NCBI GenBank assembly: GCA_031761405.1
Contig: JASEVX010000001.1
Coordinates: forward strand, 26,078,261-26,142,260
Direction of reading: 5' to 3'
DNA length: 64,000 nt
From: Serripes groenlandicus
Taxonomy: Eukaryota > Mollusca > Bivalvia > Cardiida > Cardiidae
Shown piece by piece: positions 13,594 through 63,475 of the stretch. Below the pieces are notes generated by a model. It worked only from the letters and a program-made list of their open reading frames with translations. It was not told where the DNA came from and searched no databases. Position 1 is the first letter of the stretch, and each line of letters begins with the position of its first letter. Position numbers and translations under genes: made by a program.

Positions 13594-13956
13594 ACTTTCC
13601 CACATACAACAAGTCTTAACCCTTTCCCTCATACGACAATTCTGCAGCAGACGGCTTTGAACATATTTTGTCAAAAAATGGAACATCTCTATAATTGAAT
13701 GGATAACCTATGACTAAAAGTGGAAAACATTGTGTCAAAAGGAGAAATTGCTCGTTTTGAGCAATTTCTTTTTTTGTCACTATGTTTTCAAAAAGCCGTC
13801 AGAAAGCGTCTATATGAGGGAAAGGGTTAAGCAGACGACACACCCACAAATATATGGAAAACGCCTGAAAATGAAAGTGTAATCACTGAAAAGCCGGAGT
13901 TGAAAACATTGTGACGAATGGAGAAATTGCAGAAATCGTCTGTATGTGTGGAAAAC
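13594..13956 (-). mobile_element. older CACAT-type MITE split by the 13616 insertion
   Basis: Halves at 13594-13615 and 13831-13956. It keeps gttgaaaacattgtgac and ends tctgtatgtgtggaaaacgg. Confidence 0.75.
13616..13830 (-). mobile_element. TTAA MITE nested in an older MITE
   Basis: Left flank ends ...cccacatacaacaagtc and right flank resumes gcagacgac, the two halves of a CACAT-type copy. The centre is GCTCGTTTTGAGC. The right end lacks the CTGCTGCAGAGG block. Confidence 0.9.
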
Positions 13957-17906: not shown

Positions 17907-18212
17907 AGCTTAAAATATTAAACAGAATAAAACATTTAATGTAAACATTACAAGGGACTAGCCCAGACATAACTTAATCTAGTGTAGAATTTCTGAGATA
18001 TGATCACAATTTTGAATGATTTGAGAAAAAACATGTAAATGGACGGTCACACATCAATGATTAAAATAATTTAATAAAAATAAAACATGGCAAAAATATC
18101 AAATCAACAATCAACAATTCCAGCTGTACCCGACTCATATAAACAAAACAAAGGGCCATGTTTGAATTTTGGAAGCTATCTTCTACAGCTGAGTCAAACA
18201 TTTTGAGCAATC

Positions 18213-18425
18213 TTAATCCTTTACCTCATATAGACTCTTTCTGACGCCTCTGAAGCAGACAGCTTTTTGAAAACATAGTGACAAAAGAAGAAATTGCTCA
18301 AAACGAGCAATTTTTCCTTTTGACACAATGTTCTCCACTTTTTGTCATAGGTTATCCATTCGATTTTTTGACAAATTACGTTCAAAGTCGTCTGCTGCAG
18401 AATTGCCGTATGAGGAAAAGGGTTA
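18213..18425 (+). mobile_element. TTAA MITE
   Basis: Sister of the 21376 copy in its left end and left flank, but the centre is GCTCAAAACGAGC and a short stretch near the ...ccattc boundary is deleted. Confidence 0.92.
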
Positions 18426-18507
18426 ATAGACAGCAACCCAGAGGACAAGATAAGGAGGAGTAAATAGGTCTTGCTTCAATGATATCTCTGTAAGCACTCA
18501 TATAAAC

Positions 18508-21010: not shown

Positions 21011-21375
21011 ACAAGGTTTTCTGCTACATGTAGCATTTGTCCTTTCAGATGATGGAATATTTCTAGACATATATGTACATGGATTTTTTTAAAATACATT
21101 TATGTTCAATTTTACTTCAGCCTCTACACAGAAAACTTTGCATCTAAATATTTGCAACCAGTGAAGATCAAGAATAGGTTGTGCATTCAGTCTGATCAGG
21201 CTTCACACCTATTGCTATTTGGTCAATAACAGTCTTTTAAAAAATAGTTGGAACATTGGCAAGGTTCACAGAATGAATTGGTAGATCTTACACTTCAAAA
21301 AGTTCATCTTACATTTCAAAATGTTTGAATTTTGGAAGCTATCTTCTACAGCTGAGTCAAACATTTTGAGCAATC

Positions 21376-21604
21376 TTAACCCTTTACCTCATATAGACTC
21401 TTTCTGACGCCTCTGAAGCAGACAGCTTTTTGAAAACATAGTGACCAAAGAAGAAATTGCACAAAACGTGCAATTTCTCCTTTTGCCACAATGTTTTCCA
21501 CTTTTTGTCATAGGTTTCCATTCAATTATGCAGATTTTCTATTTTTTGACAAAATACATTCAAAGTCGTCTGCTGCAGAATTGCTGTATGAGGGAAAGGG
21601 TTAA
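21376..21604 (+). mobile_element. TTAA MITE, full length
   Basis: Left end reads ccctttacctcat and ctctgaagcag, the same private variants as the copy at 18213. The 50 bp before it also matches. The centre (GCACAAAACGTGC) differs from that copy. Confidence 0.93.
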
Positions 21605-21855: not shown

Positions 21856-23193
21856 TTAGCAGCCCCTCTTTGGCCCTTTCAACACCTCGTCAGGAGCCTT
21901 CCAGGATTCCTCATTGTCAAATCTATTCTTTATAAATGTCAACAATTCAGCTCCCATGATTAAACAGAAATCCTGTGTCACAATAAAGGCTTCATTAAAT
22001 TCTGAAGCTGAAATCTTCAATGGCTCCTCCTTGTCGAAAACATACTGACAGTAATCACTAACTTGCCGTTGAATTAGATTATATGCTGCAACCTCTTTAT
22101 GGAAACTGTCATCCTGTTCGGCTATCTTCCGCCAGAATGTTCTGTTAAAATGGTTGTACAGGACGTAATCCACACTGCTCCATTGATGGTGTATCTTTAG
22201 GTGACCAGGATCGGGAGTTCCCCGTTTGTATGTGTAATTACCCACATTGGAGGTATGATAGATGATGTCTTCCAATGACCAGCACATGATGCGTTTTAGT
22301 AACACTAAAGATTCATGAAAATATTCCATTATCATGACGAGGCTAAAGTCTCTATCTAACTGTTCTATGTATGTTAATACAGCTGTCAGATCACTAGTGA
22401 GGTCCTCCCTGCCAGCTGGAAATCCAAGAGGCATCCCCAAACAGTGTGATAACAGATTCTTTGTTACCGAGAACCCATCTGGTATACAATATCGGAGAGG
22501 GGAGCCTTCATGGCTTCGATAAAACTGTTCATACCCGTCAATGTTATAAATATATTCTGAGAGGCGGTCCTTAACAAACTTCACCTTGGATATGTTTGCA
22601 ACATTGAAATAATGAAACGCGGACTTAAAATGACTGTATGGTTCACGTAGTATTGTAATGTACGAGGTATTCTTCGGCATAAGATTAGACAAGACTGTTT
22701 TATTATAAATAGAATGTTCTATCAGAATATTAAAGGATTTGTCAGATTGGCGATAATCGATCTCTTCCATAATAAACGGCCATCCCAGATAGATATTCTT
22801 CTTCCTCGGCAACACGAAATTTAAACGTCGTAAGTAACCAAACCTTCGAAGAATGGAGGCTAGGGTTTCAGTCGCACATTTCATTGTCTTAATGAAAACA
22901 AGGTTACGCTTTTCTCTGCACTTCTCTCCATCTATCTTGTTCCGCTTCCTGTTCTTTATGAGAAGTGAATCAAAGCTGTCAATAAAGTAATCCGAATCCG
23001 ATTTATACGCCCTTGTTGAAGGCTCATCTTCCACTGCACCCTCGCCTCCATGCACCACATAAAAGTCCTCTTTTGCAACATACGTGTTCAGTTCCTTAGC
23101 CGTTTTAAAATTCACAATGTAGACTATCACAGATGTGACTAGAAGCACAGCAATTATGGACGATCTGATAGTTTTGAAGTGTTTTCTCCCCAT
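21856..23193 (-). CDS. galactose-3-O-sulfotransferase family protein
   Basis: 445 residues, close to the 423-residue length of human GAL3ST1. The family transfers sulfate from PAPS to galactose 3-OH on glycolipids and glycoproteins in the Golgi lumen. A short basic N-terminus (MGRKHFKTIR) is followed by one membrane segment at about 11-29, giving a type II topology. The PAPS 5'-phosphosulfate-binding segment is near 98-113 (LVFIKTMKCATETLASIL), with the invariant Lys of the KT pair. The 3'-phosphate-binding segment is near 177-196 (TSYITILREPYSHFKSAFHY), with the Arg and Ser expected there. NxS/T sites occur at about 164, 175 and 200. The coding region is uninterrupted. The start is the first Met, in front of the membrane segment. 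The exact acceptor sugar cannot be told. Chondroitin or other carbohydrate sulfotransferases are less likely because the REPYSHFKSAF form is GAL3ST-like. Confidence 0.86.
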   Translation of the reverse strand: MGRKHFKTIRSSIIAVLLVTSVIVYIVNFKTAKELNTYVAKEDFYVVHGGEGAVEDEPSTRAYKSDSDYFIDSFDSLLIKNRKRNKIDGEKCREKRNLVFIKTMKCATETLASILRRFGYLRRLNFVLPRKKNIYLGWPFIMEEIDYRQSDKSFNILIEHSIYNKTVLSNLMPKNTSYITILREPYSHFKSAFHYFNVANISKVKFVKDRLSEYIYNIDGYEQFYRSHEGSPLRYCIPDGFSVTKNLLSHCLGMPLGFPAGREDLTSDLTAVLTYIEQLDRDFSLVMIMEYFHESLVLLKRIMCWSLEDIIYHTSNVGNYTYKRGTPDPGHLKIHHQWSSVDYVLYNHFNRTFWRKIAEQDDSFHKEVAAYNLIQRQVSDYCQYVFDKEEPLKISASEFNEAFIVTQDFCLIMGAELLTFIKNRFDNEESWKAPDEVLKGPKRGC

Positions 23194-23249
23194 CTCTTTT
23201 ATACAATTACTGTTGTTTCTTCTTTGACCAATGTTTATTCTTTGTTTCT
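23194..23249 (-). promoter_or_regulatory. 5' UTR and splice acceptor of the sulfotransferase gene
   Basis: Reading the minus strand, a run of T followed by ACAG ends at 23248. This is a good 3' splice site 54 bp before the start codon. It suggests one or more non-coding upstream exons joined to a single coding exon. No in-frame ATG lies in between. Confidence 0.5.
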
Positions 23250-23296
23250 GTAAAAAAAAAATGGTACATCATGCACAAACTTTTTCCTGACAATAA

Positions 23297-27838: not shown

Positions 27839-28363
27839 TCAAAATTTGTATATTATATCGTGATTCCAGTGTTGGTCCAGTTTTGATTTGAAATCATTTA
27901 AATCTTTTGAGTTGACAACATACTTTGGGAGTGAATTCCATTCGTTGATAATCCTCTGAGAAAACTGTTGAAGCCGAAAAGCTGTATTACAACGAGGTTT
28001 GGCTAGTCTAAAGTCATGCCCTCTAGTAGTTGAAGGACAAATATTAAAAAATCTGTCTGGTGTTATGCCTTCAATGCCTCTAATAATCTTGAAAGCCTGT
28101 ATCATATCCCCCCTTTTTCTCCTGTGTGACAATGATGGAAGTTTTAGTTCTTTTAATCTGTCAATATACTCAAGGTTCCTCAGCTGAGGTACAATCTTAG
28201 TTGCTCGCTTTTGAACTTTTTCGATACTAATTATGTCCTTCCTCAAGAATGGGTACCAAATAGTATTTCCATACTCAATATGCGGTCGCACCATAGTTTT
28301 ATAGAGCATGATAAATGAGTCCTTATAAATGTGATCGAATGAACGTACGATTAATGAAAGCAT
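27839..28363 (-). pseudogene. LINE RT C-terminal (thumb/tail) part in a shifted frame
   Basis: Contains MVRPHIEYGNTIWYPFLRKD, KVQKRATKIVPQLRNLEYID and LPSLSHRRKRGDMIQAFKII, the usual tail of CR1/jockey-type RTs. A frameshift of one or two bases near 28,360 separates it from the RT core. Confidence 0.85.
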
Positions 28364-29665
28364 ACTATTTCATAATTTGCCTTGTTAACTTTTGAGGCAA
28401 TGTGATGACTGAATTTTAGATTGCTCTGAAATGTTATACCTAAATCCTTCTCTTCGGTCACAATTTCCAGATCAACAGAGTTCATTGAGTATGTATGTTC
28501 TTGATTATTGATTCCATAATGAATGGCCTTGCATTTATCGACATTAAACCGTAATTGCCACAATTTTGACCAGCTACACAGGGCTTCCAAGTCCTGTTGA
28601 ATTATGTTAAAATCACTGTCATGTGAATAAAGTTTAGTATCATCCGCAAATATCTTGACTGTACTACTTACTACTTCAGGTAGGTCATTAATGTAAATAA
28701 TAAACAGTATAGGTCCTAGGACGCTGCCTTGGGGTACACCACTTATGACGTCCTGCCATGACGAACAATGTCCCTTAACCGCTACGTATTGTCTACGTTC
28801 AAATAAGAAATCCGAGATCCATGCTAGAAGGTTACCCTTAATACCATACGACGAAAGCTTGCTACGTAAACGTTGGTGAGGAACACTGTCAAATGCTTTC
28901 GCAAAATCCAAGTACACTGTATCCCATGCGTTTTTGTTCTCAATAAACGTAGACCAGTCCTCCATGACGTCAAGTAGTTGAAGAACACAGGAACGACCCG
29001 AGCGGAATCCAAATTGCGCACTAGATATGAGATTATTTGTATTTAAGTGTTCTAGAACGGCAGCTCGTATCAGTTTCTCCAAGCATTTACAAACGATAGA
29101 TGTCAGGCTTACCGGCCGATAATTACCAGGTGATGTCTTACTTCCTTTCTTGAATAATGGAGTTACACGGGCCTCTTTCCACACTTTGGGTAATTTGCCA
29201 GTCAATTGATTTTTGGAATAACAATACTAGTGGGGTTGCAAAAACGTTAGCCATAGTTTTTAATAATAATGGAATCAACTCGTCAGGTCCCATCGATTTA
29301 CCACCATCTAGTCCCAACAAGATTTTCAGAACACTATCTATTTTAAGTTGTATACTTTCAAGGGGTACATTAGAGACACGATCAGGTACAACAGGAACAT
29401 TTTCTGTATTCGCTTGTGTAAATACACTGGCAAAGAACCCATTTAAAACTTCTGCTTTATCCAGGTCCGTCCTGGTTATTGACCCATCATCTTTGACAAG
29501 ATTTGTTACATTTGATACTGTTTTTATTTTACTTTTCACATATTTCCAGAAATGTTTACTTTCTGTCTTTGCCTTGGCTGCAATTAACCTTTCATAGTTT
29601 CGTTTTGCTGTCCTAATACTTTCAGTAGCAGTATTTCTTATTTTACTATAATTTACAAAATCCAT
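28351..29665 (-). pseudogene. LINE reverse transcriptase domain
   Basis: RT motifs in order: VTPLFKKGSKTSPGNYRPVS, QFGFRSGRSC, YLDFAKAFDSVPHQRL, SGVPQGSVLGPILFIIYIND and the catalytic FADDTKLYS. A frame change near 29,205 separates the N-terminal part (MDFVNYSKIRNTA... onward) from these motifs. Confidence 0.9.
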
Positions 29666-29689
29666 AGGACATTTTGTTGCCTTGTAACG

Positions 29690-31443
29690 TTACCACGCAT
29701 GCTTCTTGTCCTTTATACATTTTAATGACTCACTAGTTATCCAAAGTGGTTTAGGTTTACAACCTCTCCTAGGTATTACCTTTGGCACATGTTTGGCTAC
29801 AGAGTTTTTATAGCGGTTTGCAAAAATATCCCACATATCGTTTATGTCGCGCTCATCAAATTCTTTCTTCCAATCTATACCAATCCATTCTTCCGAGAAA
29901 CCCTTAAAATCACACTTGCCATATTTCAGTTTTGAAGCGCCTGTGTGATATTCTTTAAAGGAGCACAAATAGCTGAACAATATTGTGACATGATCACTCA
30001 CACCTAAGGAGGGTAAAATCTCGATTTCCTCGATGTCATTTTCGTCATTTGTTAGAACAAGATTAAGAATATGAGGAGTTTGATTAACTCTAAAACGTGT
30101 CGCCTCAGAAATATGTTGAAATAGAAAATTGTCCTGGATACACTCAAGAAATTTATGTTCATGATGAGTTTCACTATGAGAGGTTGTATACTGTGTCCAA
30201 TCAATGTCCTTCATATTGAAGTCTCCGGCAATAAGCACTCTTTTACAACTATCCGTTGCATCCTTTATAAGTCTATTTATTTTGAGATGTGAATCATGTG
30301 ATGATTGGCTTCTGTAAATTGCGCCAAGTATTATAGTCTGATTTTCAAAGACCCAGTTACACCATGAAGCATCGTCATAGAGATTGTTAAGATGAATATT
30401 AGGCGAAACATTCATATCCGACTTTGTATATATAATTACACCCCTTCCACTGTCTTTACTTGGAAATGCACAATAACCATCCAGCTGATACAATACTGAA
30501 GAACACGACATATCCGACGACACCTTAGGCAAGACCTCAGTACCTGGGTCACAAATTTGTTCACTGGAATGAGTAAGTGTACTTGTGAATAAATGAGAAT
30601 CTTAGGCAAGACCTCAGTAATGAAAATAATATCGGGATTCTCTAAAGATAGTTGTATTTTAAGCTCATCCAGCTTATTTCGCAACTGATCCGCATTTGTG
30701 TATAAACATTTAGTTTTGTTGATAATTACATCTATTATATTTGTATCACTACTAGAAATTATTGGCACATCTAAAATCACATTGTCTTGACTAGAAACTA
30801 ATGGCACATCCAAATACTCACTGTCTTGACTAGAAATTATTTTAGGTACATGTCTCGTTCCACTGGACGGAGTCAATGTACTTGGATTATATACATGAGA
30901 AACACTACTAGGAACACTGAGATTGCACATTTCTCCACTAGAATGAGAAAGCTTATTCACATATTTATGAGAAATATTACCAGAAGCAACTAGATGAGAA
31001 ACATTTCTAGAAGCACCTGGGTCACAAATTTGTTCACTGGAATGAGTAAGTGTACTTGTGAATAAATGAGAATCTTGACTAGAAACACCTAGATCACACA
31101 TTTTATCACTGGAATGATTAAGTGTACTTGTAAATGCCTGAGAAACATTACTAGACACACAGAGATCACACATTTCTTCACTGGAATGATTAAGTGTATT
31201 TGTAGCTATATGAGAGTCCTTTCCAGAAACACCACCAGAATGAATCTGTGCACTTGAATTAATAACATTTTGAATGATAGTCTCACTAAAAACATTGAGA
31301 TCATTTGAACTATTTAAATTAACATCAACATTAACTTTAACTTCATTATTTTTATTTACAGAGTCAGAGGGTGCAAAACTATCTTGACTGGGCCGGAAAC
31401 CGATGTGCCCCTCCTCCTCCACTTGTACCTCCCGCCTGCCCAT
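29690..31443 (-). pseudogene. LINE Ser-rich linker and APE endonuclease domain
   Basis: Residues after 31443 form degenerate 22-26-aa repeats (SSQDSHLFTSTLTHSSEQIC type). The endonuclease starts at TNADQLRNKLDELK and continues with LIAGDFNMKDIDW and LGVSDHVTILF; GDFN and SDH are catalytic APE motifs. A 77-bp insertion at 30524-30601 splits the domain into two frames. A TAA at about 29,689 ends it before the RT. Confidence 0.85.
30524..30619. repeat. templated insertion inside the LINE endonuclease
   Basis: The 19-bp cttaggcaagacctcagta occurs at 30524-30542 and 30601-30619. Between them lie 61 bp (30542-30602) identical to 31015-31075 in the Ser-rich repeat part of the same LINE. Confidence 0.9.
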
Positions 31444-31954
31444 TAATATCCTTCCTATCTATAATGCTTCCTCTGTAGATTACTAAGTTAGGGTTATTAA
31501 TCTTTCTGTGTTCCAATTCCATTCTTAACTCCCTATTTAGATCTCTTTCCTGTTTCGTTAAATCCGGCGTGATATATATATTGCTCCATCCGTGATCCAC
31601 TGCTCCGTCCCCATTTTTCTTTCTTAGGAATTTAGTTCCTCCTAACAGCCTACGCTTAGACGAAACCGATTCCAACATTACCTTTAGTAATCTAGGTTTG
31701 TAGGAGCCGGGCCTACCCAACCTCACAAATGCCTTTGGAACGACATCATCGCACTCTATTGTGGAGAAAATGTTTTGAAGTTTTTCGAGATCCTCTCTTT
31801 TTTTGTCCTCATTTGTTGGCTCCGGGATGTTGTGTACAATGATATTCAACTTCCGTTCCTCCCGCTCCCGGAATTCTTCAATTGCGATTTCCACGCGCTT
31901 ATTAACTTTTTCATTGATGCTTTCTTCAATGTCTTGATATATGGTGTTCTAGTA
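31379..31954 (-). pseudogene. LINE ORF1-like protein
   Basis: Basic coiled-coil-like start (IEEFREREERKLNIIVHNIP), then RLGRPGSYKPRLLKVML and an ITPDLTKQERDLNREL block. This is the RRM/C-terminal arrangement seen in ORF1 proteins of LINEs. It ends in a Gly-rich tail that overlaps the next frame. An upstream stop lies just beyond 31954. Confidence 0.75.
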
Positions 31955-32094
31955 CTTCTACATGTGAAATGTTAGAAAGTGTGACAATTTAGGACTGAAA
32001 CGGGTCGATTTACATGGAAAGAAAGAAGGATTTTTTTTTGGTGTATTGTAACCTATATTCTAAAATATTGATCAATTTAGTTAGGTCATCCAAT

Positions 32095-32484
32095 TGTAAC
32101 GTGCAGGGCTTAAAGACACAGAAGATCCCTTCAGCGAAAAGTATACTCAACCCTGAAGGGGTCCACTTGTCTTATATATCTAACCCTAAACCTCATCACC
32201 CCGAAACGGTGATGCTAATTTGCATATTCGTTACAATACTTCCCACTACGAGAAGACTCGTCCCGAGTCTTGGCCTGGGAAACCCAGGGGTAAGGCAACT
32301 CCGGTATGGCAGTTGTCTTCATCCCCCCACATTGGCCACCAAATGTAACGTGCAGGGCTTAAAGACGCAGAAGATCCCTTCAGCGAAAAGTATACTCAAC
32401 CCTGAAGGGGTCCACTTATCTTATATATCTAACCCTAAACCTCATCACCCCGAAACGGTGATGCTAATTTGCATATTCGTTACA
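32095..32484 (-). mobile_element. TRIM-like miniature LTR retrotransposon
   Basis: Two 141-bp direct repeats (32095-32235, 32344-32484) differ at two positions. Each starts TGTAACG and ends CGTTACA. They flank 108 bp of non-coding DNA. A 4-bp CAAT duplication lies outside (32091-32094, 32485-32488). On the minus strand the inner side of the 5' repeat reads TTTGGTGGCCAATGTGGGG, a possible primer-binding site starting TGG. No coding capacity. Confidence 0.8.
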
Positions 32485-33388
32485 CAATGAAACAAGAAAT
32501 CGTACGATAATTGTTGAGGACGAACTCATATTGAGGAGTTTCCCCAAAAAATCAACACCGTTCATTTGAGATTTTTTTTTACTTCTAAGCTATCTCAGTA
32601 GACGATAAAGGCTCATAAAACTATCAAGGCCAGTATCAAAATAGTCGATTTGCGTTTTATTCTAAAAAATAAAAGTTACGAACCTTTGACGGAATTTGAG
32701 ATATACTTTTTTGGTAATTTGTACAAAGTTCTTTCCCCTGATCCCTCTTCAACCTTCAAAAATAATAATAAATTTCCTCCCACTCTATCTTTTTTTTCTG
32801 TAACCTTTCGTTGTTTTGAATCCCACTAGGGACGATGTTTAACACTTAATGAAGGGAAAATGTCTGCTGGATGCTTACTTAACGATCAACTGTTTATCCC
32901 AAAACATCATCAACGGAATTTATCTACAGATCGTGTCGTATGTCTGGTAGGTATCGCCCAATGAACGATTCGCTCTAAAAATTACTCGCCCCATCTTTTG
33001 ATTGTCAATTTGTCATCGGGTCCTTTCACCTTTATTTTTAGTTTCGGCCCTGGTCCATTAACCGTTCTTGTTATATCTCATATGATTTATATCTTGTGAG
33101 TATTTGCGTATAGGCAGGATATTTATTAATATGTTAATAGGCAAAGCCTAGGTCGTGTGAAAGCAAGAACAATTAATTAAGCACTGTCAGTCCAAGAACA
33201 AGAAACAAATTAATAGGCAAATTGTAGAAAGTTACCGAAACAGAATTTGAAAAACATATTGAAAAAACCCAAACTTATCATGCATTTAAGTTTAATTAAT
33301 TTGTACATATGTTTTATTTTTTATTAGGTCAGAATTGTAACAGACTGTAAGATTTCCAAAGATGTTGATGGAAAACAACACTAGAAGG
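32485..33388. other. no gene seen
   Basis: AT-rich spacer between the TRIM-like element and the MULE-like element. No repeats recognised. Confidence 0.6.
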
Positions 33389-36332
33389 GGGTATCACTAA
33401 ACAGAGTCTGGTAGAGTCCGGTAGAGTCTGGTAGAGTCTGGTCGTCAAATATCCCATTATATCACTGTTTTGTTGTGTTTTTGTATTGAAATGAATAAAA
33501 TAAAGTGCTATTGTATCATATAAATGAAAAAATAAAAGGTATCTGCCTATTTTAGTTCATTTTCGAGTGAATATAGCAATATTATATGCGTGAACACGGA
33601 CACTGGTAGAGTCTGGTCATTATTAAGCAATAAATACAAAGTTTTATACGATTTTTAAGTTATAAAAAGTTTAATTTGATTTATATGTGTATTATATATT
33701 TATTTCTTATATTATTTCAGCTGATAATCGGGAAAATAGTGGAAGATTGAGGATTTTTAACGATAACATTGTGTTTCGTAAATCAAAATGGCTGACGTGA
33801 AATTTCTGTTTATAATGCGGCCCTATCGTACATCCTGTAAGAGTAACACACTAAATTCTCTCTCTATTATGGGCCAACTAATTGATTAGGTGTGATCAAC
33901 AGATTAGTGTTATAATTACCAAGATTTTAAATGTATGTTAACTACTAGATTGGAATAATTTTATGTATTATATGTCATAAACATTAATTAAACCAACTGC
34001 TTAGAGAGCTATATACTTACTTAAAAGTAATTCATATGAAATTGCAGGATAAATTGAGTGACATCGACCAGAGTAAATTAATATTTTGTTCCTACGAAGA
34101 GTTTTCGACTTGTAAAGCCATTGACATATGTTTCCCACAAGCCACAAGAGTTCTTTGCGCGAAACATTTGAAGGATAATGCGGTAAATTTACTCAGTGTC
34201 TTCCTCAACCTTAGGTTAACCGCATTATTTGTAAACTCTTCGGACCTCATTCACAGAAATGGACCAAGAAATATCCAATACACATCCAAATTTGACATAT
34301 TTACAACGGATACTTACCAATTTGGAGAAGCATATGTTTCTCCCCAAACTCAAACATTCCTGGCTACCACAACAATGGTTTAATAATGCAAATGAGTCGT
34401 ACAACCATGTTATCAAAAGGACGACAAACTGGGTAGTCCAGAAATTGCCGACATGATAGAAAAGTTACAAGAACTTGAACAGTGTCAAACTCTTGATGTG
34501 AGAGGCGCAATGCACGACTCGGGTAAATATTGTTTGGTGACACAAGCGTCGGTGCTACACGTTTCTCATGCTACATGGACACAGTTAAGTCCTGACCAGA
34601 GATCAAGGTGATTTATGAAATTATTGAACTTTAAGTCGCATCACATTTCAAACATCACATCAACAGATAAGCAACTAACATTACCCTCCATTACGAGAAT
34701 TGAACGAAAACTCGGCACGCGCAAACGCCTGAAAAATTGCAAAACATACACAATTGAAAATAAAAAAACACAGATTATATTGAAACACATTCATGTTAAA
34801 AGGACTGCATATTTTAGTTGCAAACCAACAACAATATATTTTTTATCAATCATTAGCTAATACCTGTATGTCAGTTGTACATTCGACATTTTCAACAATA
34901 ATTCCTCTATATCTGTCTAAAATGTTAACGCTAGGACCAGGTTTAAATTTGAGTACTGGTTATGTCACCAGGAAGCAGACATAAAGAAGCGGAAAATATA
35001 AACCAAAAACAATGAATTAAAATCCAAAAAAAATGGAGCTCTGTGTATGGTCTTTTTTGTTAACCTACAATGAGATCACGTCACCAATTAGAAACGAATT
35101 GAATCAAACACACCTAAATCTTGAGGATACAAAAGAAACCGGCATACATCTGTTAGAGATTCGGGTTGAGACAAATGTGTTAAGGGACAATTCCTGGTTT
35201 GTCCTTTGCGTATCATTCGATTTAATAGCGAGCTGGCAGGGGAAGGGCTCTATATTGACTTATGAGTTTCGTGGGTAATGTTGGCCCCGGGTTCACATGT
35301 TGCCAATGTCTGCATACTAAACAAGCGCTGCGAGCACCCTAAGCAAGCACGCTCAACAGTGGTGCAGACACGGCCGGTAGCTGGGTGCTGCTGCTCGGCC
35401 ATGCTTTTGATCTTTATCATATGAATGTACATAGAACCAAAATCATAGAATAAAAAATTTAAAAAATGGAGCTCTGTGTAGGGTCATTTACGGCCCGGGT
35501 CCTCGTCAGGCGCACGGGCTCTATTTTGGTAACCTAAAATGGAAAACATAAAAATAATAAATAAAATAAAAGAATAAAATTCCCAAAATGATATAATATA
35601 GATCCAAACATTAAATTTTGGACCATGAGAGAGTTCCTCCACGTGGTGTGGCCTGAATACAATATTTCGCAAAATGCATTTTATGAACTATATCAGGATA
35701 TATATTTATTTTTCAAGTTAAAATATTTTTGCATATTTTTAAAAAAAAATGCAAATATGGTTTAGTTTGATTCTATTTTTTGCGGAATGTAGTAACTACA
35801 CACTCTCTTTAGTTTCATATGAATTACTTTTAAGTAAGTATATAGCTCTCTAAGTATTTGGTTTAATTAACGTTAATGACATATAAGACATAAAATTATT
35901 CGAATCTAGCAGAAATTTTTCGTCAGCCATTTTGATTTACGAAACACAATGTTATCGTTAAAAATCCTCAATCTTCCACTATTTTTCCGATTATCAGCTG
36001 AAATAATATAAGAAATAAATATATAATATGACACATATAAATCAAATTAAACTTTTTATAACTTAAAAATCGTATAAAACTTTGTATTTATTGCTTAATA
36101 ATGACCAGACTCTACCAGTGTCCGTGTTCACGCATATAATATTTCTATATTCACTCGAAAATGAACTAAAATAGGCAAATACCTTTTATTTTTTTATTTA
36201 TATGATACAATAGCACTTTATTTTATTCATTTCAATACAAAAACACAACAAAACAGTGATATACTGGGATATTTGACGACCAGACTCTACCGGACTCTAC
36301 CAGACTCTACCAGACTCTGTTTAGTGACACCG
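33389..36332 (+). mobile_element. MULE-like DNA transposon with long TIRs
   Basis: Ends (C/G)GGT(A/G)TCACTAAACAGAG are inverted. The left arm is about 650 bp (33389-34043) and the right about 520 bp (35812-36332); the right has lost some 130 bp. An 8-bp CTAGAAGG duplication flanks the element (33381-33388, 36333-36340). Four 10-bp AGAGTC(T/C)GGT subterminal repeats sit in both ends (33403-33442, 36280-36319). The interior has a degraded transposase and unrelated AT-rich DNA. Confidence 0.88.
34036..34613 (+). pseudogene. MULE-like transposase remnant
   Basis: Frame fragments read CKAIDICFPQATRVLCAKHL and WLPQQWFNNANESYNHVIKR, resembling the second half of a MULE transposase core (FP...C..H.. 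and NNA.ES.N..IK). A frameshift near 34,450 leads into MIEKLQELEQCQTLDVRGAM. Only part of the catalytic core is present, so the copy is dead. Superfamily assignment is by eye. Confidence 0.55.
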
Positions 36333-37184: not shown

Positions 37185-37258
37185 TCATGTACCTGCTGAG
37201 ATTTGAACTCAGAACTCTTGTTAGACCAGGTGTTCTACCATTAAACTACAGTATAGGT
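37185..37258 (-). mobile_element. tRNA-like sequence (Val-like loop), probably SINE head or pseudo-tRNA
   Basis: Minus strand gives tagtttaatggtagaaca, loop ctaacaa, and the T arm ctgagttcaaatctcag. The acceptor stem does not pair, so a working tRNA is unlikely. Confidence 0.45.
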
Positions 37259-46300: not shown

Positions 46301-49300
46301 CCAGTGCAGATTCCTGAGCATGAAAGAGAGGGGGGATGTAACTCTTGCAACACAGGGGAAATAAAAGAAATGAAATTATGCAGAAATATAAGAAATTAGT
46401 GGTTAAAATAATAATTTGTTCTTTTCCCACAGTTTTCCAACTCAATCCAATTCATACTACAGCATATGACATCTTACAATAATTGTTATGTATATATTCA
46501 AAACAGACAACAATTAAAATGGCATAGAATGTATCTGGCAACAGTATGAAGAAATATTTTTAGATTCAGTTGGAATGATTTTTATTGATTATCTTTTAGA
46601 GAAGCAGTACGACCGGAGACAGCCAGTATCAAGCTTCCAGACGACTTTGATCCCACATCTCCTCTGGATCAATTTGAAGCTTTAAATTCCTTCACAAGTA
46701 AATCATCTGAGACACTGCCTCCCTCCACAAATAAACTGAAGGTAAAGTCATAAGGGGGAATAAATAAGTCTTTCTAATTATTCAATTAACCCTTTCCCAC
46801 ATACAACAAATCTGCAGCAAACAACTTTAAAAACATACCCAAATTTATTAAGTAACTCCCTTTAAATGAAGGTACAATAGTTGAATAGAGTTGAAAATAT
46901 AGTGACAAAAGGAGAAATTGCACATTATGAGCAATTCCTTCTTTTGCCACAATGGTTTCAAAAGTCGTTTGCTATAGAGGAGGGTCTACATGCTGTTACT
47001 CAAAGAATCATCTCAGTGAGTACCACGGTCAAACAAAGATTTTAGAACATGAAATATAACACTTATCTAGAGCTCTGTAAAATACTGACATTTCGCCAAT
47101 ACAGTCAAACTTATGAAATCACCTGCTACAGATGTGTCTAGGGTTAACCTTTTCTTGGTAAAGATGACCTAAAACTCTACTGTTGCAATGTCGTCAACAT
47201 TGCTCTTTATCTAACAGTGCCTTGTATTTTTCTGCCAAACTTTTGATTCGAAAGAAACTAACAATGATTTATCAAGTCATAGGTTAAATTTGTTCATTTA
47301 AACTGTTTAACCCTTTCCCATAAACAACACATTTGCAACAGAGGACTTTGAAATCGTGGTAACAAAAACCTGAAAAATCTCCATAAAGATAGCTTAATTG
47401 TTAAATAAAGTTGAAAAGATTGTGGCCAAATTAGAAATTGCTCACCATGAGCAATTTCACCTTCGGCCACACTGTTTTCAAATGTCGTCTGCTGCTATCA
47501 CGTCAATATGCATCTGCAGGTGGGAAAGGGTAAGTCCTGATTTGGTTAATAAGAAGAGATTTTAGTTTTCTTCCTTAACCCTTTCCCTTTTCCCTGACGG
47601 CTTTTTGAAAACATAGTGACAAAAGAAGAAATTGCTCAAATGAGCAATTTCTCCTTATGCCACAATTTTTTCCACTTTTAGTCATAGGTTATCCATTAAA
47701 TTATAGAGATTTTCTATTCTTTGACAAAATATGTTCAAGGTCGTCTGCTGCAGAATTGTAGTATGAGGGAAAGGGTTAAGGGATCTATCAGTGAAGAAGT
47801 GATGAATGATCAGAGATTCATCAGCTGCAAATTGGTCAGATTGAGCAATTTCTTTTATCATTTCTATCTAGGACCCGTCCCTCACGCTAAGCGACATAAA
47901 CGATACAATGCGGAGTGTCTGGATGGATATGCAGCAGTTTGGCTGTCTAATGTGTGAACTGTATCTGGCCAATAGAATTCAAACACAGAGACCAGATAAC
48001 AGCCTCGTTGAAAGATACAATCTCATTGGTCGAATCTATACAATGGATAAAACTAGTCTACCGAGGTAAGGCATAGAGGGTGTTGTAAGCTCTTCTGACT
48101 GAAAGCATGAAAACTGTTCATATTTGCAGCAGACGAATTTGAAAACATCTGGACAAGAATGTGAAAAATCTCTGTTTAATACTGGAAATCTTGTCATTGA
48201 ATAAAGTTTTAAACATTGTGACAAAAGGAGCAATTTCTGCTTTTGCCACAAAGTTTACAAAAGTTGTCTGCTGCAGATGTGTTAAAATGCGTCTACAAGT
48301 GGTAAAGGGTTGTTAGTTCTTCAAATCTAAATGGAACTCTTCAAATAACACATAGATGGATCCAGGCCCTCATGGCCTTCTTTTGAATGGATTCTAAAGA
48401 CATTTCATTTGAAATTCATTTAACCTTTCCTCACTTGTAGATGCATTTGGACGCATGTGCAGCAGTTCACTTGAAAGCATTGTGACAACCAAACTCTCCT
48501 TTTGTTACAATCATTTCAACTCATCTCAATATTTATGCTTACATTTAAGGAATATGTCACCATATATTTGCCTAGATATTTTCAAAGTTGTCTGCTGCAG
48601 ATTTGGTGTATGAGGGTAACTATTCAATCTGATCATGGTTATTTGTGTATGCTTGCAATTGAATGCAAAAGGTTGTCAAAAGGAAGAAGCCATTTATTCT
48701 TTACAATTTAAATACATATAGTTATATTGGTAGTTGAACAAGATTGGTATAGTAAAAGGGTCTGTTTGTTCCGTCAATAGACAATGAGTAGTTGGATATT
48801 TTTTAACCCTTTCCCACCTGCAGATGCATTTTGAAAACATTGTGGCCAAAGGTTGAAATTGCTCATGATGAGCAATTTCTCCTTTGTCCACAATGTTTTC
48901 AACTTTATTTAACATTTAAACTATCTTTTATGAAGATTTTTTAGGTTTTTGTTTGTGCTTTGTTTTCAAAGTTGTCTGCTGCAGATTTGTTGTATGTGGG
49001 AAAGGGTTAAGAAGACACTTATACTGAATAAGCTTTTGTAGCCCAGGTAAAGCAGAACAATTCATCAGATTCAAAATATTGGAATCCACTAAGTAACAAG
49101 GAGTAGGTAGGTAGTTGTAGTTATAGTGAACCCTTATACTGTCTTGCTACTGAGCTATTTTTTATAGCAGCATGTTAAAGTGTTTTCCTTTGATACGCAA
49201 AAGAACTTGGCTATGTGTATTTAATCATTTACGAGTATGATCTTTTATCACATCTGCTGCAGACGGCTTTGAAAACATGCTCAATTTGTTGGCATAAACA

Positions 49301-55300: not shown

Positions 55301-58300
55301 CTGGGGTTTTATTTGTTGTTTTTCCCTAATGTTTCATAGCCGGCCAACCATGGTTGTTGACTCCGTAACGCTCCAAACATCATGTAAAGCGGAGTAAACA
55401 ACTGTGTGTGTCTGACGTCACAATGTTTTAGCTTTGTATCAAAGTCATATTCCAAATAATTTCACATGTTGCATATTCTCAAAATAGGCAATGCAGAAAT
55501 ATCATATCAAGTAAACTTACACTTTTGAGTCCAGCATTACTTTGGCAAGAAAAGTTCATTCAAAACATCTGCTTGTCATGGTAGCTCGGTCGGTATTGAC
55601 TCCGGCTGTCAATCCAGGGATTGAAAGTTCGAATCCCAGGGTTAATAATCTTTCCTTCTCCACACTGTTTTGAACTCTGTATAAACATTTGGATAGATTT
55701 CTCTCTAAGTTTAAAACATGAGGATATCAGGTAACCAGTTAACCCTTTCCCACATACAACAAATCTGCAGCAGACATTTTTGAAAACATCAAGAAAAAAA
55801 TATGAACAATCTCTTTAAATGAATGTTTAATGGTAGAAAATAGTTGAAATCATTGTGGCAAAAGGATAAATTGCTCATTATGAGCAATCTCTCCATTTGC
55901 CACAATGTTTTCAAAAGACGTCGGCAGAGGAGTCAGAAGGTGTCTACATGTGGAAAAGGGTTAACGTCAAACATTCTTTTTTTCTTCATAATCATTAGAT
56001 CCATGTTGCCAAGAGACGTACTACAGTCAGAGCCGAAGCAGGTCTGGTAGCAGCTGTGGTACTGTTGAGAAAAATCATTCCATTATTGTCCGATAAAACA
56101 TTCCTAGAAAACTTACAGGTAATTGTAAAAATGAACCCGCTGAAGGTATTAGCTTTTTTTTTATATACCCAGATTTTTTTTTAAAGCTAATCCAGTAGAA
56201 CGTCAATGACACAATGGCATATAAGAGGTGAAAAGCTTGGGTCATTGTAATGATTCGAGCTGTAATGTTAGGAGAAAAGACCTTTGGTCAAATGTGATTG
56301 GTGTTAACAGAATAAATTAACTGCGCACCGTAATTTTAGCAGTGGCATAGGAAACATAGGCCTTTGGACATTTGTAACCAGTTTAGATTCAGAGCATCTG
56401 GTAAGTCACTGACAAGAAGCTTCATTTGTCTTCCACCAATGGGCTAACAGTCTATGTAGAAAAGCAGCCAGTTGTTTGGAAATAGTGTTGTGTTGGGTAC
56501 TGATGTGAGAAAGCCAGGAAACACATGAGTAGGTAAACTGGCCACCGTGATATGACTAAAAATAATTGGAAAAGGGCTCTTAAACCCAATTAATCAATCA
56601 GATCATCTGATAAAAATATATGCACACAGTCTGATCAGAATTTGATCAGTGTTTGCTGATGCAACAGTCAATGTGTTAGTAAAGAATCTTCATGTTTAGA
56701 ATCAAAGGACCAACAAGACTGTAGGAATGTGCCTGATGATCCTAAGCTTTTCCCTCAAGCAGACACATCTTGACCCATCTAAAGAAGACAGCTTGTGAAA
56801 AGTCTGGAAAACGGTTAAATTGCTCATAATGAGCAATTTCTCCTTTTGCAGCAATGTATTTGATAAGATGCTTTCCGTTTGTCAACTGCATATTTATTGG
56901 ATGTGGTCAATGGTTAAGATACACATGAGGTAAATTTCAAAAAGCTCGGTTTTTTATATTCGTCTCTTTACCTTCAGGATTCCATTTTGAAGGATGCTGT
57001 TAAACCCTTGTTACGGTTGATCGTCTCCACTTCAACATCATTCCCCAGTGGCACAGAGATGCGAAGACTGATCCTATACAAAATGATTGATGTCATATAC
57101 ATATTGGGCCTCAGGCTGGGGTTTGAAATGACACGGAATTACATGACAGATGTCATGCAGACCTTCTTCAAGCCGTTTGAACATATTTATTCCAATGGTG
57201 AATTTAGATCGATGACTCCAGTCGGCAGTACATCCGACTTGCAATATTTACAGTCCAATTTGAAAGGTAGGGTAGTAATTTTAACCCTTTCACACATACA
57301 ACAAATCTGCAGCAGACGACTTTGAAAGCATACCCGAAAAAAGTTGGTAACTCCTTTTAACCCTTTTCCTCATACGACAATTCTGCTGCAGTCGACATTG
57401 AACATATTTGGTCAAATTATAGAAAATCTCTATAATTGAATGGATAACCTATGACTAAAAGTGGAAAACATTGTGGCAAAAGGAGAAATTGCTCATTTGA
57501 GCAATTTCTTCTTTTGTCACTATGTTTTCAAAAAGCTGTCTGCTGAAGAGGCGTCAGAAAGCGTCTATATGAGGGAAAGGGTTAAATGAAAGAACAATAA
57601 TTGAACAGAGTTTGAAAACATGCTGACAAAAGGAGAAATTGCTTCTTTTGTTGACATGTTTTCAAAAATCTGTCTGCTTCAGAGCCGTCAGAAAGCATCA
57701 ATCTGAGGGAAAGGATTGAGTGTCTAAGAATTCAAACTGTTCATCTGGTATGATAGATTTAGTTGTCTGCTTTAACCCACCTTTCCCGCATACAACAAAT
57801 CTTCAGCAGACGACTTTGAAAATAATAAAGGCAGGAATATGAAAAAATCTCTCTTAATGAGAGAACAGTTAGTGAATAGAGTTTAAAACGTTGTGACAAA
57901 AGGAGGAATTGCTCATGATGAGTAATTTCTTTTTTTGCCACAATGTTTTCAAAAGTCTTCTGCTGTAAAGGCGTCAGAAAAATTGGTGAGGAAAGAAGTG
58001 TAACATCTGGAAAATTAGAAGTTTTATTATCCCTTTCCCTCATATTGATGCTTTCTGATGCCTTTACAGCAGACAGCTTTTTGAAAACATAGTGACAAAA
58101 GAAGAAATTGCTCCTTTTGCCACAATGTTTTCCACTTTTAGTCACAGGTTATCCATTCAATTAAAGAGATTTTCCAATTTTTCGACAAAATTTGTTCGAA
58201 GTCCTCTGCTGCAGAATTGCTGTATGAGGGAAAGGGTTAATGCTAAGATTTTAAAACATAATGGTTAAAAGGGAAATTATTTATTTTGGGCAATTTCTCC

Positions 58301-63015: not shown

Positions 63016-63245
63016 TTAACCCTTTCCCTCATATAGACGCTTTCTGATGCCTCTGCAGCAGACGGCTTTTTGAAAACATAGTGACAAAAGAAGAAATTGC
63101 ACAGAACGTGCAATTTCTCCTTTTGCCACAATGTTTTCCACTTTTTGTCATGGGTTATCCATTCAATTATAGAGATTATTTATTTTTTGACAAAATATGT
63201 TCGAAGTCGTCTGCTGCAGAATTGCTGTATGAGGGAAAGGGTTAA
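63016..63245 (+). mobile_element. TTAA MITE, full length
   Basis: 230 bp with intact ends and a GCACAGAACGTGC central stem. Confidence 0.95.
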
Positions 63246-63475
63246 ATACTTAAAACCATATTTCATCATTTTTGTTTTCTTAATAAAAAAGCCAAGAGAT
63301 ATCATTTCTTAACAAGTATTGTTAGTCAGAAAGGTAATCATGTATGTCAACTTATATGTCATTTGACTAAATATATTCCACCATTCGTGTTTCATAAATT
63401 ATAAGGGAAACAAAAATTGTGAAATATTCTTGTAAGTCTTTAAGTATAACTTAGCGCTAAAGTAAGGTTGGTGGA

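What the first reader, a model, noticed from the sequence alone, without database searches (positions are those of the whole stretch)
57281..57719. Nested MITEs show TTAA target duplication: a piggyBac-type family
Seen: the inner copy is bounded by TTAA at 57357-57360 and 57582-57585, inside a relative whose unoccupied form is visible at 46786 (ctccctTTAAatgaag). Removing the insert and one TTAA restores that form. The element therefore starts CCCTTTCCC and duplicates TTAA. Known: TTAA duplication and CC(C/T)-type ends are the hallmark of piggyBac. Inference: this very abundant family (about 75 copies or fragments in 64 kb) is moved by a piggyBac-like transposase elsewhere in the genome.
Basis: partly seen in the sequence, partly recalled or inferred. 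Interest (0 to 1): 0.8.

Follow-up and report, generated by a model that had tools for sequence, protein, structure and literature searches.

The report
A piggyBac-type miniature transposon family
A fifth of this animal (probably clam-like) DNA stretch is made of short, gene-less jumping elements that insert at TTAA sites and carry piggyBac-style ends, so they were most likely moved by a piggyBac enzyme coded elsewhere; the family looks undescribed but is of an ordinary, known kind.

Summary
The inner element (57361-57581) is flanked by TTAA on both sides and sits in an older relative (57281-57719) whose empty form exists at 46862-46865. Three filled/empty comparisons each fit best with exactly one TTAA in the empty site: this one, 13616-13830, and 63016-63245 (in a non-family repeat). 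All four TTAA bases are strongly kept at copy ends, which argues against TA and TWA target duplications. There are two layers: a younger subfamily (median 4.7% from consensus) and an older one (13.8%), together 88 copies or fragments, 22% of the window. Anatomy matches piggyBac: CCC...GGG tips, 14-bp terminal repeats, subterminal repeats at unequal distances (base 22 left, 33 right). The consensus 9-bp tip CCCTTTCCC equals that of two published coral piggyBacs, one tied to a coral MITE family. Kolobok, a rival that also duplicates TTAA, has AG tips, not met here. The decisive test, an autonomous partner in the same genome, could not be run: the genome search did not complete in 13 tries. No piggyBac domain was seen in 58 window ORFs. 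Verdict: a new family of a known kind (piggyBac/TTAA MITEs).

The parts
57357..57360 (.). left TTAA of the inner copy (target site duplication)
57361..57581 (+). inner MITE, young subfamily (fam1)
   Evidence: 259-bit full-length match to the fam1 model, 57357-57585 with both TTAA
57361..57374 (+). left 14-bp terminal inverted repeat (CCCTTTTCCTCATA)
   Evidence: 14-bp length from the consensus
57382..57392 (+). left subterminal motif (consensus TCTGCAGCAGA, an 11-bp palindrome; this copy differs from it), base 22 from the tip
   Evidence: for the consensus; position read by eye
57464..57529 (+). central palindrome (foldback, 32-bp arms)
   Evidence: I3, 91% complementary; whole element folds with z -9.37
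57539..57549 (-). right subterminal motif (this copy differs from the consensus), base 33 from the tip
   Evidence: for the consensus; position read by eye
57568..57581 (-). right 14-bp terminal inverted repeat
57582..57585 (.). right TTAA of the inner copy
57281..57719 (+). host MITE (best matched by the older subfamily, fam2, when joined) split by the inner copy; left TTAA intact, right TTGA
46786..46995 (+). uninterrupted relative of the host; empty TTAA at 46862-46865
13616..13830 (+). second nested case: young copy with both TTAA, inside an older copy
63016..63245 (-). third filled site: young copy in a non-family repeat
63399..63475 (-). unfilled copy of that non-family repeat, one TTAA
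6981..7211 (+). full-length young copy including both TTAA
52271..52500 (-). full-length young copy with the best score to the fam1 model (275 bits), including both TTAA

Best explanation
A non-autonomous, non-coding DNA transposon family (MITE), about 222 bp without the TTAA, that was moved by cut and paste by a piggyBac-superfamily transposase supplied in trans. Shown from sequence: TTAA duplication on insertion, CCC...GGG tips, 14-bp terminal repeats, a second repeat at unequal distances (base 22 and base 33), two subfamilies of different divergence, and young copies nested in old ones. Inferred: the enzyme bound the tip plus the subterminal palindrome TCTGCAGCAGA, cut next to TTAA and joined the element to a new TTAA, as described for piggyBac. 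The foldback core (with a diverged second copy of its arm on the left) is probably a relic of how the MITE arose; no function is claimed for it.
For: Three filled/empty comparisons fit exactly one TTAA best: 57357 (scores with 0/1/2 TTAA 110/127/116), 63016 (49/66/62), and 13616 against five of five relatives tried (the non-family site also). TTAA stands in the young subfamily at 14 of 16 left and 19 of 22 right ends, in the older at 17 of 34 left and 12 of 31 right ends; in the young ends the outermost T is kept in 16 of 16 and the outermost A in 22 of 22. TIR 14 bp, subterminal repeat offset 11 bp in both subfamilies. The published coral piggyBacs AmiPB1 (CCCTTTCCCGTCC) and AmiPB3 (CCCTTTCCCTACTA) share the 9-bp tip, and coral MITE family I shares the AmiPB1 TIR (PMC2872659, Results part 1 of 2 read). 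Canonical piggyBac has CCC...GGG tips with 19-bp subterminal repeats 3 and 31 bp inside the terminal repeats (PMC2533014, passages), called identical palindromes arranged asymmetrically (PMC11707139, passages). CCCTT is the most conserved piggyBac end motif in a survey that included molluscs (PMC10813416, passages).
Against: No autonomous partner was seen: 58 of 58 window ORFs of 75 aa or more that are less than half covered by MITEs or earlier noted ORFs show no piggyBac domain, and the own-genome search did not complete. All three empty-site cases are young-subfamily insertions; the older subfamily is assigned by similarity and its ends. In the 13616 case the relatives carry TGCA or TTCA, not TTAA, at the site, so TTAA in that host is inferred. 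In the 63016 case one TTAA beats two by only 4 score units. The subterminal palindromes are not significantly more conserved within subfamilies than random pairs of 11-mers (fraction reaching observed 0.70 and 0.058). Asymmetric subterminal palindromes are not universal: piggyBat lacks that pattern. Annotated piggyBac content of a clam genome table is very low (0 and 228 copies in two columns; PMC8905726, passages).
Confidence: 0.86

Rival explanations
1. Kolobok-type MITE: Kolobok transposases also duplicate TTAA and are common in bivalves, so the family could be moved by Kolobok.
For: TTAA target shared (PMC6004289, passages). Among the molluscs of one study Kolobok is almost exclusive to bivalves, and its curated bivalve library holds 43 Kolobok against 27 piggyBac elements (PMC10294476, passages). 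piggyBac is scarce in a clam genome table (PMC8905726, passages). The window looks bivalve-like.
Against: Kolobok is described as having RR tips, AG in all ten full-length Xenopus elements of that paper; here the tips are CCC.
Confidence: 0.07
2. Sola3-type or an undescribed TTAA superfamily moved the family.
For: Sola3 is recalled to duplicate TTAA; this comes from no call, and the source paper was not held.
Against: No positive evidence; the tips match published piggyBacs. Sola3 tips were not seen in any call.
Confidence: 0.05
3. TTAA is part of the terminal repeat, or the true duplication is TA (Tc1/mariner) or TWA (PIF/Harbinger, recalled) at preferred TTAA sites.
For: TTAA is palindromic, so the ends alone can be parsed in several ways.
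Against: Empty sites fit one TTAA, and the outermost T and A, free under TA or TWA parses, are kept in 16 of 16 and 22 of 22 young ends (p 1.3e-8 and 1.2e-11). Caveats: two of these copies share a flank, and one left end (TAGG) keeps only its first base.
Confidence: 0.02

Closest known systems
CMITE family I and the piggyBacs AmiPB1/AmiPB3 of the coral Acropora millepora (PMC2872659)
   Same: TTAA duplication, tips CCCTTTCCC, non-coding MITE, a filled/empty pair, several families sharing an internal region
   Different: CMITEs are about 100 bp and beyond the 9-bp tip their listed TIRs differ; the window family is about 222 bp with a large foldback; the internal sequences could not be compared because they are not in the parts I read
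canonical piggyBac (Trichoplusia ni; PMC2533014)
   Same: CCC...GGG tips, TTAA duplication, subterminal repeats at unequal distance from the two ends
   Different: no transposase gene; the second repeat starts at base 22 and 33 here, against 3 and 31 bp inside the terminal repeats (13 bp long, recalled) in piggyBac; tip sequence beyond CCCT differs
T2-MITE / Kolobok of Xenopus (PMC6004289)
   Same: abundant short elements with a TTAA target
   Different: tips AGGRR / AG, not CCC

Membership tests
piggyBac/TTAA MITE | TTAA target duplication | tested here: met
   three filled/empty comparisons; end tallies
piggyBac/TTAA MITE | tips CC(C/T)T | tested here: met
   consensus CCCTTTCCC(T/A)CATA at both ends; rule from PMC2872659
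piggyBac/TTAA MITE | terminal inverted repeats of 12-19 bp | tested here: met
   14 bp perfect in both consensuses; range from PMC2872659
piggyBac/TTAA MITE | asymmetric subterminal repeats (canonical piggyBac; not universal in the superfamily) | tested here: met
   12-bp (young) and 18-bp (old) perfect repeat at base 22 and 33
piggyBac/TTAA MITE | short, non-coding, many similar copies | tested here: met
   88 copies or fragments, 36 with both ends
piggyBac/TTAA MITE | autonomous partner with a DDD transposase and the same ends in the same genome | not tested
piggyBac/TTAA MITE | precise excision restoring one TTAA | not testable with these tools
   needs alleles or a cell assay
Kolobok | TTAA target duplication | tested here: met
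Kolobok | RR (AG) tips | tested here: not met
   tips are CCC; rule from PMC6004289
Tc1/mariner | TA duplication with free outer bases | tested here: not met
   empty sites
PIF/Harbinger | TWA duplication (recalled) | tested here: not met
   empty sites
Sola3 | characteristic tips and transposase | not tested
   source paper not held

The most novel reading that the evidence does not exclude
An undescribed molluscan MITE lineage that ran through at least two waves on the same CCCTTTCCC tip found in coral piggyBacs, keeping palindromic subterminal motifs at a fixed 22/33-base asymmetry. It would make these motifs the paired binding sites of an undescribed piggyBac transposase, and would mean that one end-recognition code persisted across distant animal phyla.
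Probability: 0.3. Interest if true: 0.45.

Novelty: new member of a known kind. Interest (0 to 1): 0.27.

Why it matters
It gives an apparently undescribed, very dense piggyBac-type MITE family with an order of waves and usable empty sites, and a concrete prediction of which subterminal motif a transposase would bind. For genome annotation it explains about a fifth of this window. It does not change the understanding of piggyBac elements.

Tried and rejected
Regex search of long degenerate ends timed out and was replaced by nhmmer models. The outputs were cut; the counts come from one search, which re-read the stored tables. A first joined-flank scan of 35 copies gave 92 spanning alignments, those visible being mostly within-family, so it was repeated with family sequence masked. 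That scan over 36 two-ended copies gave one convincing non-family empty site (63016) and two weak spans with E 1.1 (52271, 58352), which I do not count. A count of TTAA restricted to alignments reaching model position 1 (14 of 14 left, 18 of 19 right) was biased towards intact ends and was replaced by an extrapolated count (14 of 16, 19 of 22). Exact search of the ends in viral and prokaryotic contigs found 0, as expected for an animal element. In the 63016 test the forward-strand alignment was a trivial self-match of the flank and was ignored. TA, TWA and Kolobok readings were set aside as above. Conservation of the subterminal palindromes within subfamilies was tested as support and was not significant. 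Of the 58 window ORFs, three gave only weak, below-cutoff Pfam matches (MULE E 0.051; DUF4874 E 0.0044; PRiA4_ORF3 E 0.008). That the family looks undescribed rests on literature searches only; Repbase and Dfam were not available.

Full report
What is there. The inner copy is bounded by TTAA at 57357-57360 and 57582-57585 and lies in an older relative running 57281-57719. Profile models of two subfamilies find 88 non-redundant copies or fragments above 20 bits: 27 best matched by the young model, 61 by the old one. They cover 14,029 bp, 21.9% of the window; 36 have both ends, 14 young and 22 old. Median divergence from the consensus of the same copies is 4.7% for 14 young and 13.8% for 22 old copies. 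None of the 88 lies between 26.95 and 39.1 kb, a stretch that holds a LINE and other sequence.

Target duplication. In three cases the filled site can be compared with an unfilled one, and each time exactly one TTAA fits best. First, 57357 against 46786: 110, 127, 116 for 0, 1, 2 TTAA. Second, 63016 against a repeat copy at 63399-63475 that is not of this family: 49, 66, 62, a narrow margin over two. Third, 13616 inside an older copy: one TTAA best against five of five relatives tried, although those relatives read TGCA or TTCA there, so the TTAA of that host is inferred. A profile scan of the joined flanks of the two-ended copies (36) for host copies of the same family found only the first and third cases spanning the junction. 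In both, a young copy sits in an older one.

TTAA or a shorter duplication. Because TTAA is palindromic, TA or TWA parses must be weighed. I extrapolated each copy whose alignment comes within about 9 bases of the end. Young subfamily: TTAA at 14 of 16 left and 19 of 22 right ends; outermost T 16 of 16 (one of them in TAGG), outermost A 22 of 22. Old subfamily: 17 of 34 and 12 of 31, as expected from decay. Two young copies share a flank, so the ends are not all independent. A four-base target fits best.

Anatomy. Both consensuses have perfect 14-bp terminal repeats, CCCTTTCCC(T/A)CATA. A second inverted repeat (TCTGCAGCAGAC, 12 bp, in the young; 18 bp in the old) starts at base 22 from the left tip and base 33 from the right tip. 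TCTGCAGCAGA is an 11-bp palindrome around a central A, read by eye from the sequence. The centre is a foldback with 32-bp arms; the inner copy folds as single-stranded DNA at -49.4 kcal/mol against -19.5 +/- 3.2 for 200 shuffles, z -9.4. In the old consensus the left half holds what looks like a second, diverged copy of the foldback arm (1 of 2000 base shuffles reached the score).

Comparison. Canonical piggyBac has CCC...GGG tips and 19-bp subterminal repeats 3 and 31 bp inside the terminal repeats (PMC2533014, passages), described as identical palindromes set asymmetrically (PMC11707139, passages). The coral piggyBacs AmiPB1 and AmiPB3 share the 9-bp consensus tip, and coral MITE family I shares AmiPB1's TIR (PMC2872659, abstract and outline, passages, Results part 1 of 2). 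A survey including molluscs found CCCTT the most conserved end motif and TTAA in most elements (PMC10813416, passages). Kolobok also duplicates TTAA but has RR/AG tips (PMC6004289, passages), so TTAA alone does not settle the superfamily; the tips do the work. Kolobok is well represented in bivalves (PMC10294476, passages) and piggyBac scarce in one clam table (PMC8905726, passages), which keeps this rival alive. Sola3 could not be checked (passages of PMC5199201 and PMC4455052 give no Sola3 tips).

Host. The best named match of the WDR81-like ORF is from the clam Ruditapes philippinarum at 55% identity; the six higher-ranked matches are unnamed, and 120 of 334 matches were listed. A bivalve or other mollusc is likely, not shown.

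What is missing. No piggyBac domain was found in 58 of 58 ORFs of 75 aa or more that are less than half covered by MITEs or earlier noted ORFs (57, one; list). Shorter or decayed remnants would be missed. Against a special role of the subterminal palindromes: they are not significantly more conserved within subfamilies than random positions.

Verdict. It is a new family of a known kind, of modest interest. On re-check I lowered the piggyBac confidence from 0.87 to 0.86 and raised Kolobok from 0.06 to 0.07, because the low piggyBac counts had been left out.

Noticed in passing
18158-18426 and 21321-21604: Two young copies share an identical 55-bp flank beyond one end and an adjoining stretch of about 75 bp with one difference, while the other flanks are unrelated: a copied tract that crosses the element end, perhaps gene conversion or repair copying.
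   Followed up: partly
57263-57284: The host MITE's TTAA begins about 14 bases after a splice-donor-like AAAG|GTAGGG at the end of a WDR81-like exon; the splice site was read by eye.
   Followed up: no
27839-31948 (- strand): LINE-type retrotransposon with endonuclease and reverse transcriptase domains, inside a 12-kb gap without any of the 88 MITE matches.
   Followed up: no
21859-23268 (- strand): 470-aa open frame with a galactose-3-O-sulfotransferase domain.
   Followed up: no
33988-34380 (+ strand): ORF with a weak, below-cutoff match to the MULE transposase domain (E 0.051).
   Followed up: no
37193-37251 (- strand): tRNA-like match, 32.5 bits against a cutoff of 29; possibly a SINE or pseudogene.
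   Followed up: no
31999-32490 (+ strand): ORF whose translation holds the same block of nearly 50 residues twice.
   Followed up: no
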